Below are positions 1 through 3,484 of a stretch of DNA of 64,000 nucleotides, in pieces. The stretch comes from Geosiphon pyriformis (taxonomy: Eukaryota > Glomeromycota > Glomeromycetes > Archaeosporales > Geosiphonaceae), in the NCBI GenBank assembly GCA_016748015.1, contig JAAOMT010000198.1:176894-240893 (forward strand). The letters are read 5' to 3'. Every line of letters begins with the position of its first letter. The stretch's first letter is position 1. The notes below the pieces were generated by a model, which was given only the letters and a program-made list of their open reading frames with translations, made no database searches and had not been told where the DNA came from. A program made the translations under genes and the position numbers.

Positions 1-1753
1 GATTACTCATATATGCAAGATAGTAAAAATGGTGGTTCCACTGAATATGAAAAAGCAATACGTTTCTTAGAAACAGGTTGCCATTGTGGTTGTTTATCAA
101 AGGTTCCCAGAGAAAAATTTGCCGAATTACGTGAAGCGTTTCAAGCTCTCTCCAGATCCGAGCAAGATATATTTTTAATGGCCCAACTAAAAGCAATGAA
201 TGGTGGAGAAATAACTGCCAGTCGACGTCTTAAAAAGAAAGCGCGTACTAATAAGAGAACTTTTTATTATTGAGATCGCAATACGCCACTTTGTCAGAAA
301 ACGTATCTCAATATGTTGGGAATTGGTCGCACTCACTTCGAAAACGTTAGAAATCACTTAGCGACAAACGGTATAATACCACGCGTTCATGGTAACATAA
401 AACGAATACCGCGATGAAAAACCAAAATAACAATTGATATAACCGTTGCTATCGCTGTGAAGAACTTTCTCGAAAACTATGCTGAAATTCATGGATTACC
501 AAGTCCTGGTAGAAATGTCAACCGAATTACGCTTGTATTTTTACCAGCAGAAACGAGTTACAAATCGGTCTATCGTGATTTTATTGCAGGCCTCGAAAAC
601 GATAGCTCGTTGAAGGTGTTAAAATATGATGCATTCCGCAAGTTATGGCACCAATTAACGCCTTATATTCAAATCATGAGTCCAAGAACGGATTTATGTG
701 ACACATCCCAACATTTTCGGAACGGCTTACAGTATAATGCTCGTAAGGAAGAAGAAGCGAGAGACTTACTAAAAAAATTTAAAGAGCATTTAGTTAAGGC
801 CAAATTAGAAAGAAATTATTACAACAAAAATACGAAATTGGCAGAAGAACAAAGAAAATTGGTAGATGATAATTACGCCGTAACAGGAGGTAAAGCTGAT
901 TATTGTAGCGTTGACGCGACTGCGCATTACAGTTACGATTGAGCGCAAAATGTTCACGTACCCCATTCCGATCAACAAGTAAATAAAATTTACTATCTCA
1001 GTCCGCGTAAAGTACATTTATTTGGCATCCAAGATGAAGCAGTACGCGAACAAATCAATTACGTTCTTGATGAGAATGAAATAATAGGGAAAGGCCCTAA
1101 TGGCACCCTGAGCATGGTATTCAATGGAATTAAGAGACTGAATAAAGGCGAAAAAGATTACTTGTGATAATGCGGGTGGTCAGAATAAAAATAATGCCAC
1201 CATTTGATTTTACCTATATTTAGTAATTTGCGGTTATTACGAAAGTATCGAATTAAATTTCATGGTACCTGGACATACCAAATTTAAGTGTGATGGTAGT
1301 TTTGGATTGATTAAAAAGCTTTATCGAAAAACAACAGTAGATTGTGTGGATCACATTGTTGAAGTTGTGAAAAAATCAAGTACAGCGGGATTAAACAAAG
1401 TTCAGTGTTATGAAAACGGCAAAGGCTTTCAATACTTAGATCTTAATTCCGTGTTGGGGATTTTTTTTAAGAAATTGAGTGGTTTACAAAAGTATCAGCA
1501 TTTTCTATTTGAAGCAGCTCAACCTGGAGTTGTCAAAGCCCAGCTGGTTGCTAATGGTACTTATACTGAATTTAATTTGTTAAAAACTAGAAAAGCAAGT
1601 GTTTCTGAAATTACCAAAGAAATTAAGTCCTTTTCAATCCTAGTACTAACCCCTCCGCCTTTGGATTACAGAAGGCAAGAATACCTTTATCACAATATTC
1701 GTCCATTTGTCCGGGATGAATTCAAAGATATCACTTGTCCAGTACCAATCTAA
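1..1753 (+). pseudogene. DUF7869-like transposon-type protein, disrupted, 5' end off the window
   Basis: The frame is open from base 1 and can be followed to TAA at 1751-1753. One frame runs from 1 to about 1160 through TGA codons at 271, 415 and 940. The next runs from about 1160 to the end through TGA at 1205, so there is a single frameshift near 1155-1170 in an A-rich stretch. Visible motifs include PRVHGN, ENYAEIHGLPSPGR, a cysteine pair in TDLCDTSQHF, HYSYD followed by QNVHVPHSDQQ, then CDNAGGQNKNNA and PGHTKFKCDGSFGLIKK. This order (DN.GGQNKN then GHTKF..D..FG) matches the large DUF7869 family that I know as transposon-like proteins in animals and early-diverging fungi. Every TGA falls where tryptophan would fit. 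The protein may come from a fungal mobile gene carried by an endobacterium, or may be a fungal copy damaged by G-to-A changes. No terminal repeats were found. Confidence 0.6.
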
Positions 1754-1803
1754 TCTATACTGCCAATAAATAAACATATTTATATTACCGAAGCTATAGA
1801 AAT

Positions 1804-2782
1804 ATGAATAATCAAAACAAAATTGATTCCCTTTACACTTTTATCAAAGAACAAGTCAAACTCAAAGGGAAAAAATTAAAAATCATTGCTGATTGAGATG
1901 AATGTTTACAATCTAATAAGCCATTTTTATTGTGAGAAGCTGGGAAGAAAAATCTTTCTTTTGGGGATTATTTTAAAAGATTTTGAAGCAAAGCTGAAAT
2001 TGCTACTCATAGTCCTAAAGGGCATGGTTCTATGATTAATGCTGATGTAATAAATTCATGATAATGATCTTATATTGATAAAGATGATCCTAATGAGAAG
2101 ACAAATATTCAAAGATTAGCTTCGGGAGAATTAAAAAGAATAAGAAATGAAAAGGAAACCCAGCATTGTAGTGAACAACATTCTTTTTATGATCGTTCCC
2201 CTTTTTTGTCTATTGCAAGCTTTAAAAGAAGAACTAATTAGTGAATTAATTATTGTGACAGCCTTTAAAAAAAAAGGACATGCGAAAGGTTATCCAGTGG
2301 GGAAAAAGAAAAAATTTGACAAAACTTGGGGACAATTTCCACAAGCCAAGGTTGATTTTATTGAAACTAAGGTTGTTTTAGAACAAGAATTAGTTCAACC
2401 TACGAGATGGGATTATATTAAAGAGCATTATCCCAATTTTGATTTATATATTGATGATCATCCCCTTTCAATTGAGAAAACTAGCAAAATTATTCCCAAC
2501 AGCTCTTATGTATTACCAAAATTTGCTTGTAACAATTATCTCGAAGCTCCCAATATTTACCATCTTGAGACTAGTGCTACTGATCTCAAAAAAGGAGACT
2601 TTGCCATTGCTGTCTTAGAGATGAAAAATAACCAGTTAAAGAAAAAACTAAAATTTCTGCAAATACAAGAGAGAAACAGTTGAGTTTTTTGGATGATAAT
2701 TAGTGGATCACTAATTTTTATCTTAGTTGCTTTAGTAGTTAAAATTACAATAGTGCAGAAAAAACGTTTTAGAAAGAATTAA
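1804..2782 (+). pseudogene. Code-4 bacterial-type hypothetical protein with C-terminal membrane anchor, disrupted
   Basis: From ATG 1804 the frame reads through TGA at 1894, 1933, 1984, 2059 and 2065 (all plausible tryptophans) and one genuine TAA at 2062. A frameshift near 2200 passes to a second frame that continues, through TGA at 2681, to TAA at 2780-2782. Features in order: a lysine-rich start; KIIAD(W)DECLQ, resembling a DxD phosphatase-type loop; LYIDDHPLSIEKTSKI, resembling a second acidic HAD loop; a short coiled segment rich in K/L/Q; and a C-terminal hydrophobic helix (about 2687-2745) followed by KKRFRKN. The layout suggests a HAD-like domain with a tail anchor, but I do not recognise the protein and assign no function. 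Composition and lack of introns differ from the fungal genes downstream. Confidence 0.5.
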
Positions 2783-2786
2783 AAAA

Positions 2787-3150
2787 TTACTGACAAAGCA
2801 ATGACAAAGATCAGATCAAGCCATTATTTTTCGTTCTTGGTAAATTCATAAGTGATTTTTCTTTGTCTAAATATTCCTGAAGAGTTTGGGTATCATTGAT
2901 TTTAAAAACGTATGGAGCAATTTTTTCTTCTTGAGCTTTCTTTAAAATACTTCTAATGGTGCTGTAATTCTTGGGTTCCATAGTGGATTTAATAAATAGT
3001 TCTATTTAGTCCTATTGTTCTTTGGTGATGGTTTTGACAAAAGAAGTGGGTTTTGTTTCTACCTTTTGACCAGTTAAGACCTTAATGGATTGTTTCAGCA
3101 AACCAGATATGGTTATTAAGTAGGCTATAGATTTTTCTTTTTTAATTACT
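2787..3150 (-). pseudogene. Short bacterial-type ORF remnant, code 4, unrecognised
   Basis: Read on the minus strand from about 3150 to TAA at 2787-2789, the frame gives a lysine-rich protein with KVLTGQKVETKPTSFVKTIT, then MEPKNYSTIRSILKKAQEE and a C-terminal LPRTKNNGLI. It has one TGA (2811-2813) that would be tryptophan, plus two true stops (3012-3014 TAG, 3006-3008 TAA) that break it. It converges on the preceding ORF with only 4 bp between stop codons. That spacing is typical of compact bacterial genomes and not of the fungal genes in this window. I do not recognise the family. Confidence 0.35.
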
Positions 3151-3484
3151 TATTAATGTAAATTAGTTTCATATATTTTATTTTTATATAGAGATAATCC
3201 TATATTAATCCTGTTATGGTTTATATTTATCATATTTTGGTATGATAAAGTGAGTATTAAAATTAACAAGTTCATAAATTATGAATGAGCACCATTATTA
3301 CTTTTCAAAATGTCATTAGTTATACTGGTCAATTTACAGTCACATCATAATCAGTTTCTTATTTATGTTATATAATCAAATGTTTACTTTGTTTGGTTTT
3401 GTTGTAGTCTGTCCCAATTTATATAATTTTTGTTTTTATTTATGTTTATATTTTAAAACTTATTTTTTTTTTATTATGCAATTA
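3151..3484. other. AT-rich spacer, no gene seen
   Basis: The stretch is AT-rich with short poly-T tracts and no ORF. It lies between the code-4 block and the 3' tail of LINE copy A. The A-rich end of the LINE (on the minus strand) probably lies around 3465-3485. The junction between endobacterial-type and fungal sequence must be in or near this spacer. Confidence 0.5.

What the first reader, a model, noticed from the sequence alone, without database searches (positions are those of the whole stretch)
1..3150. Code-4 (TGA = Trp) endobacterial-type DNA next to fungal nuclear DNA
Seen: three consecutive intron-free, decayed ORFs share in-frame TGA codons at about eleven positions where tryptophan fits. 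The two distal ORFs converge with 4 bp between stops. True TAA/TAG stops and frameshifts are far fewer. Known: Mollicutes-related endobacteria of arbuscular mycorrhizal fungi use TGA for Trp, and gene flow from the fungus to these bacteria has been reported. Inference: this is a bacterium-to-fungus nuclear insertion, or an assembly chimera. Caution: LINE copy B also shows some TGG-to-TGA changes, so G-to-A decay could explain part of the signal.
Basis: partly seen in the sequence, partly recalled or inferred. Interest (0 to 1): 0.85.

Follow-up and report, generated by a model that had tools for sequence, protein, structure and literature searches.

The report
Fungal transposon with bacterial-code genes
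A family of jumping DNA elements scattered through a fungus's chromosomes carries genes spelled in the TGA-means-tryptophan code of mycoplasma-like bacteria, next to cargo genes in the fungus's own code, which suggests that the element lives in, and jumps out of, a bacterium-like compartment inside the fungus.

Summary
The code signal is real, but the object is not a one-off bacterial insertion or an assembly chimera. Window 1-3415 is the right part of a 5,654-bp DNA transposon (C376:174655-180308) with terminal inverted repeats (TIRs) and a 4-bp target-site duplication. The TIR occurs at 82 places (control 0); all 11 elements whose two ends I compared have a 4-bp duplication. The two long ORFs encode a DUF7869 protein (putative transposase) and an unknown protein (ORF B). 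Codons at conserved Trp columns of fetched copies: TGA 66, TGG 41, TAG 0 of 113 cells (DUF7869); TGA 45, TGG 8, TAG 2 of 65 (ORF B). Decay of TGG would give TAG as readily as TGA. The less broken copies show strong purifying selection with TGA read as Trp. Ordinary nuclear genes keep the standard code (0 of 150 scored WD40 matches with TGA). The element also carries standard-code cargo, a Crinkler-type kinase gene. None of 23 compared copies has TGG at the first conserved Trp, so the fungus could not make this transposase from them. Best reading: the family is maintained in a UGA=Trp compartment, most likely a Mollicutes-related endobacterium, and keeps inserting into the nucleus. That source was not found in any collection searched.

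The parts
13..1753 (+). DUF7869 protein, putative transposase, broken by a frameshift near 1145-1155; TGA at Trp columns at 271, 415, 940, 1205
   Evidence: Pfam PF25273 E=1.1e-15; codon alignment; 116 and 96 matches of its two parts in the genome
1804..2782 (+). ORF B, unknown protein (open relative of 328 aa on C258), TGA at Trp columns at 1894, 1933, 1984, 2059, 2681; stops at 2062 and 2065 and a frameshift before about 2210
2787..2981 (-). ORF C, small protein (MEPKNYS...), decayed; the four relatives read have no Trp, and most end in an NLS-like PRKKRK run
3185..3207 (.). TATATAG..ATAATCCTATA motif upstream of ORF C, similar to the motif just upstream of DUF7869 in other copies
   Evidence: seen by eye
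3386..3415 (-). right terminal inverted repeat; its partner is at C376:174655-174684, 2.2 kb left of the window
3416..3419 (.). target-site duplication AATT, same 4 bases left of the left TIR

Best explanation
Shown: a TIR DNA transposon family in fungal nuclear chromosomes whose own genes (DUF7869 putative transposase, ORF B, and in other copies a HIT-domain protein and coiled-coil proteins) are written with TGA = Trp; for DUF7869, purifying selection in that reading is shown. Other cargo in the same element is in the standard code. Inferred: the family is maintained and translated in a UGA=Trp compartment of the same cell, most likely a Mollicutes-related endobacterium in the cytoplasm. Transposase made there acts on element DNA in the nucleus and inserts it at AT-rich 4-bp targets. 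Nuclear copies cannot make the protein and decay, unless mobilised again in trans, which is how cargo-bearing copies, a copy without DUF7869 and 0.4-0.5 kb MITE-like copies would spread.
For: TIR pattern at 82 places, reversed-pattern control 0. 4-bp duplication in 11 of 11, 3-bp and 5-bp in 0 of 11; shuffle p 0.00025. TGA with almost no TAG at Trp columns; HIT ORF on C330 with 15 TGA and 0 TGG. Pairwise dN/dS 0.05-0.43 over the pairs with a value, 0.07 at dS 1.05 for two fully open copies; private-change ratio at most 0.20 in 14 of 23 copies. Nuclear code standard: WD40 0 of 150 scored matches (of 437 candidates) with TGA, 4 with TAG. First conserved Trp over 23 copies: TGA 21, TAA 1, CTG 1, TGG 0. 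All 35 DUF7869 domain matches in the genome lie at places also listed for the window's own sequence, so no separate standard-code family was seen. No passive influx seen: the rpoB/RPB2 family gave 7 matches, exon-sized pieces at three loci, none with TGA; cox1 gave none. Crinkler N-terminal domain and kinase domain as cargo inside the TIRs, in three standard-code frames with 9 TGG and 0 TGA.
Against: No endobacterial genome carrying the element was found: two scans of genome contigs and those of other collections were empty or gave only distant HIT proteins. These short-pattern scans find close relatives only, and the collections may hold no endobacterium of this fungus. No bacterial Shine-Dalgarno-like pattern stands out before the TGA ORFs. 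The ORF B of C150 has more TGG than TGA (6 to 3), and two of the five DUF7869 Trp columns are mostly TGG (15 to 7 and 17 to 7). The assembly shows no endobacterial or mitochondrial contig by rpoB and cox1, so neither could be looked at. Cargo split over several frames, presumably exons, fits a nuclear history of that part. Stretches in three fetched copies are withheld (N), and of the 116 and 96 matches only the best 20 each were fetched, so a standard-code copy could hide there.
Confidence: 0.58

Rival explanations
1. The transposon is purely nuclear and the fungal cytosol decodes UGA as Trp for it, by a suppressor tRNA or efficient readthrough.
For: Constraint persists on the private changes of less broken nuclear copies; ORF C has an NLS-like end in relatives and the cargo looks split by introns, so the family is at home in the nucleus.
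Against: WD40 repeats 0 of 150 scored matches with TGA. A pattern for tRNAs with a UCA anticodon matched 26 places against 22 for its control, and ARAGORN found no tRNA in the 11 of 26 that I fetched. No tRNA with that anticodon in the 93 loci or the window. Several UGAs per gene make plain readthrough very weak.
Confidence: 0.13
2. The UGA=Trp compartment is the mitochondrion, and the element is a mitochondrial plasmid or transposon that also inserts in the nucleus.
For: Many fungal mitochondria read UGA as Trp (recalled).
Against: No cox1 copy in the assembly, so mitochondrial DNA influx is not prominent; a mitochondrially made transposase would have to leave the organelle. The 15 of 15 TGA of the HIT ORF recalls Mollicutes bias but does not exclude mitochondria.
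Confidence: 0.09
3. Pieces of endobacterial chromosome entered the nucleus passively, as NUMTs do, and the repeats reflect a repeated bacterial gene family.
For: TGA-coded ORFs in operon-like order, for example a start codon 9 bp after the previous stop on C355.
Against: Shared ends with TIRs and 4-bp duplications, MITE-like and DUF7869-less copies with the same ends, no bacterial-looking rpoB.
Confidence: 0.06
4. A standard-code nuclear transposon that is decaying by G-to-A change.
For: The window copy is broken by frameshifts and stops; some copies are strongly decayed.
Against: TAG 0 of 113 and 2 of 65 cells at Trp columns; frames of 602 and 609 codons on C355 and C309 whose only stops are TGA; low dN/dS.
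Confidence: 0.02
5. Horizontal transfer of a transposon family from a eukaryote with nuclear UGA=Trp, such as some ciliates (recalled), followed by bursts in the fungus.
For: DUF7869 was found in 0 of 14 prokaryote controls and some cargo is eukaryotic.
Against: Copies differ at dS up to more than 1 and were each constrained, which asks for a lasting UGA=Trp home or very many separate transfers.
Confidence: 0.07

Closest known systems
Eukaryotic cut-and-paste TIR DNA transposons with 4-bp target duplications (such as the Sola superfamily, recalled)
   Same: TIRs of about 30 bp, 4-bp AT-rich duplication, one large putative transposase gene, MITE-like derivatives
   Different: Genes use TGA for Trp; extra TGA-coded ORFs; standard-code Crinkler-type cargo.
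ISAzo13 family transposases
   Same: Pfam PF07592 and NCBIfam NF033519 match the same stretch (401-484 and 401-480) of the C309 protein weakly (E 0.087 and 0.063), a hint at a DDE fold
   Different: Far below both families' cut-offs
Gene exchange between arbuscular mycorrhizal fungi and Mollicutes-related endobacteria (Naito 2015, Torres-Cortes 2015; seen only as cited in PMC5982333)
   Same: Same pair of partners and code is the likeliest setting
   Different: The cited flow is fungus to bacterium; here TGA-coded genes sit in the nucleus as a mobile family
Starship cargo transposons of fungi (a passage of PMC10386755)
   Same: Carry other genes as cargo
   Different: DUF7869 and TIRs here; elements of about 4-9 kb plus MITE-like ones
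NUMT-like organelle or symbiont DNA inserts (recalled)
   Same: Foreign-code genes in the nucleus
   Different: Defined ends, TIR and target duplication, many copies

Membership tests
TIR DNA transposon (cut-and-paste) | Terminal inverted repeats shared by copies | tested here: met
   82 TIR ends, control 0; both ends compared in 11 elements
TIR DNA transposon (cut-and-paste) | Target-site duplication of fixed length | tested here: met
   4 bp in 11 of 11; 3 and 5 bp in 0 of 11; the edge of the TIR was fixed after looking at the flanks
TIR DNA transposon (cut-and-paste) | DDE/RNase H-like transposase | tested here: inconclusive
   DUF7869 only; weak ISAzo13 hints; no convincing PDB relative
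Sola superfamily | Sequence similarity to Sola transposases | not testable with these tools
   No Repbase sequences; Bao 2009 not held
Mollicutes-related endobacterial gene | UGA read as Trp | tested here: met
Mollicutes-related endobacterial gene | Relatives in endobacterial genomes | tested here: inconclusive
   No relative in genome contigs; whether such endobacterial genomes are held is unknown
Passive symbiont DNA insert | Ragged ends, no TIR or target duplication | tested here: not met
Crinkler-type gene (cargo) | Crinkler N-terminal domain PF20147 | tested here: met
   E=2.4e-18 on a stop-free first piece

The most novel reading that the evidence does not exclude
A two-code shuttle transposon: an element that lives in a UGA=Trp endobacterium, whose bacterially made transposase works in the fungal nucleus, and which carries both bacterial-code genes and standard-code Crinkler-type genes between one pair of TIRs. 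It would be a natural route of gene traffic in both directions between endosymbiont and host chromosomes.
Probability: 0.35. Interest if true: 0.97.

Novelty: new variant of a known kind. Interest (0 to 1): 0.87.

Why it matters
A nuclear transposon family whose transposase, in the copies examined, cannot be read by its host's own code forces the question of where the protein is made. It makes traffic between endosymbiont and nucleus testable by a simple code mark (TGA at Trp). It also ties effector-like Crinkler genes to a mobile vehicle: of the four Crinkler-domain matches in this genome, the strongest lies inside this element and the second lies about 2.5 kb from a DUF7869 match.

Tried and rejected
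Searches outside this genome gave no close relative: genome contigs with DUF7869 and ORF B (49); viral contigs with DUF7869, ORF B (28), the TIR (56), a coiled-coil ORF (57) and the HIT ORF (79); phages with ORF B (29); plasmids with DUF7869. Plasmids with the HIT ORF gave two distant HIT proteins, 27-28% identity. PDB: DUF7869 and ORF B gave only unconvincing matches, best E 0.53 and 1.3; the HIT ORF matched HIT proteins, best E 0.00044. PHROGs and NCBIfam gave weak matches, mostly coiled-coil; NCBIfam models for the HIT ORF are far below cut-off. A suppressor tRNA was looked for without success. Structure prediction was not tried: its stated rule does not list loci from the genome search, and the window copy is broken inside the domain. 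I dropped ORF C as code-4 evidence (relatives read have no Trp). From the Trp-column count I dropped columns 2 and 488 of the C309 query, where C309 almost alone has Trp (column 488: CAG 11, CGG 5, TGG 1, TAA 1, CAA 1 of 19). In one search a copy can be counted twice where matches overlap; one search gives one row per copy. Papers: I saw search listings (21, 50, 51, 67, 68, 83, 88; one found none) and passages of PMC10507103, PMC11423566, PMC5982333, PMC4455052, PMC5199201, PMC10386755. What I saw there reports no such element; 'DUF7869' is in 0 papers of that library. Naito 2015, Torres-Cortes 2015 and Bao 2009 are not held.

Full report
What is in the window. Positions 1-3415 are the right-hand 3.4 kb of a 5,654-bp element that starts 2.2 kb outside the window, at C376:174655, and ends at C376:180308 (window 3415). 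It has inverted terminal repeats (left GGGGCAGACTGCAACAAAACCAGACAACGT; right the reverse complement of GGGACAGACTACAACAAAACCAAACAAAGT) and the duplicated target AATT on both sides. From left to right it holds a standard-code gene in three frames, presumably exons (no transcript or splice test was made), with a Crinkler N-terminal domain (PF20147, E 2.4e-18) and a protein-kinase domain (PF00069, E 4.3e-10); then the DUF7869 gene (PF25273, E 1.1e-15), ORF B and ORF C. The contig looks fungal: the window also holds domains of the nucleoporin POM152, a fungal protein as I recall, and a cation ATPase.

A family, not a chimera. The TIR pattern with up to 3 mismatches occurs at 82 places in the 124.7-Mb assembly, the reversed control at none. 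I fetched both ends of 11 elements: all 11 have an exact 4-bp duplication (ATAT 7, AAAT 2, ATTT 1, AATT 1), with 0 of 11 for 3 or 5 bp. The TIR edge was fixed after seeing the flanks. Since ATAT is common, shuffling right flanks gives 5.0 matches on average and p = 0.00025. Two of the eleven are MITE-like copies of 0.4-0.5 kb, and one (C330, 5.2 kb) shares only its ends with the compared elements by blastn and is absent from the match lists. Matches of the window's proteins number 25 (ORF B part), 96 (DUF7869 C-terminal part) and 116 (N-terminal part), lower bounds by the tool's own statement.

The code. I aligned the fetched copies codon by codon with the open C309 copy. At the five Trp columns shared by the family there are 113 cells: TGA 66, TGG 41, TAA 3, TAG 0, other 3. 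At other columns stops are TAA 32, TGA 20, TAG 13; all columns together hold 12,894 cells. In a table with one row per copy, the first Trp column reads TGA 21, TAA 1, CTG 1, TGG 0 of 23. For ORF B (10 copies, 7 columns, 65 cells): TGA 45, TGG 8, TAA 4, TAG 2, other 6; both TAG lie in one decayed copy, while the ORF B of C150 has more TGG than TGA (6 to 3). A TGG codon changes by G-to-A to TAG as easily as to TGA, so decay is rejected. On C330 a 436-residue ORF with a HIT domain (PF01230, E 1e-7) has 15 TGA and 0 TGG and 23 further matches in the genome.

Selection. Under code 4, dN/dS is 0.070 for C309 against C355 (dS 1.05; frames of 609 and 602 codons with no stop other than TGA) and 0.126 for C376 against C397. 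Over the pairs with a value it runs from 0.05 to 0.43; for many pairs dS is saturated and no ratio was given. Counting only changes private to one copy, the ratio is at most 0.20 in 14 of 23 copies (C376 0.13), 0.21-0.58 in 6 and 0.98-2.29 in 3 (C401, C249, C117, which have only 6, 1 and 3 synonymous changes). Codons with more than one change were counted as nonsynonymous, which raises the ratio. The less broken copies therefore each carry a constrained history of their own; they did not arise by neutral divergence from one dead nuclear insert.

The host reads UGA as stop. Of 150 scored WD40 matches (437 candidates), from a repeat with a conserved Trp, none contains TGA and 4 contain TAG. The 7 rpoB/RPB2-family matches hold no TGA. 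All 35 DUF7869 domain matches in the genome lie at places also listed for the window's own family. The copies examined thus cannot yield full-length transposase on standard cytosolic ribosomes, although elements with nuclear-type cargo, one without DUF7869 and MITE-like copies have inserted in nuclear chromosomes.

What it most likely is. A TIR transposon family that is translated in a UGA=Trp compartment within the fungus. Mollicutes-related endobacteria are the likeliest: they use UGA for Trp (recalled), and endobacteria are known in the cytoplasm of such fungi (passages of PMC10386755 and PMC5982333). Steps shown: transposon ends, target duplication, code, constraint on DUF7869, mixed-code cargo. 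Steps inferred: the endobacterial home, transposase acting in the nucleus, mobilisation of nuclear copies in trans, and that this fungus has such endobacteria at all. Against it: no donor sequence was found, no bacterial ribosome-binding pattern stands out, and no endobacterial or mitochondrial contig showed by rpoB and cox1, so the mitochondrion and a special cytosolic decoding remain open. A pattern for UCA-anticodon tRNAs matched at chance level (26 against 22 for the control); of the 26 I fetched 11, and ARAGORN found no tRNA in them.

Cargo. Left cargo differs between elements and lies upstream of a short shared motif just before the DUF7869 start codon. Four Crinkler-domain matches were found in the genome: the strongest is the cargo of this element, the second (C96:242829-243059) lies about 2.5 kb from a DUF7869 match, and the other two lie more than 13 kb from any place listed. 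ORF C changes place between element types and ends, in most relatives read, with PRKKRK-like residues, which would suit a nuclear protein (inference).

Placement. It works like a cut-and-paste DNA transposon; the DDE nature of DUF7869 is only hinted at (ISAzo13 models, E 0.063 and 0.087). Membership in Sola or another superfamily with 4-bp duplications could not be tested. As a TIR transposon it is a known kind; the foreign code of its genes makes it a new variant, and if the shuttle is real, more than that.

Noticed in passing
L082 3794-5101 (G000:C330:924743-926050, minus): 436-aa ORF with zinc-ribbon-like cysteines and a HIT domain, 15 TGA and 0 TGG, inside TIRs; 23 further matches in the genome, several close to DUF7869 copies.
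   Followed up: partly
L067 (C81:37600-38200) and L068 (C370:2169450-2170130): MITE-like elements of 0.4-0.5 kb with the same TIRs and ATAT target duplications.
   Followed up: partly
L034, L053, L054, L033, L017 upstream of DUF7869: A second element type (C309, C355, C294, C150) has an internal half-TIR-like sequence just before the DUF7869 start; in C309 and C355 ORF C lies upstream of the gene instead of at the right end.
   Followed up: partly
L050, L051, L052: Stretches inside or next to three copies are withheld (runs of N); they were left as they are and limit the copy census.
   Followed up: no
G000 whole assembly: No cox1 match and no bacterial-looking rpoB match: mitochondrial and endobacterial contigs seem absent from this assembly.
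   Followed up: partly
upstream of TGA-coded ORFs, e.g. window 1760-1803: Several TGA-coded ORFs share an AT-rich stretch resembling TAAAATTATTTATAT 10-40 bp before the start codon; it may be a promoter (by eye).
   Followed up: partly
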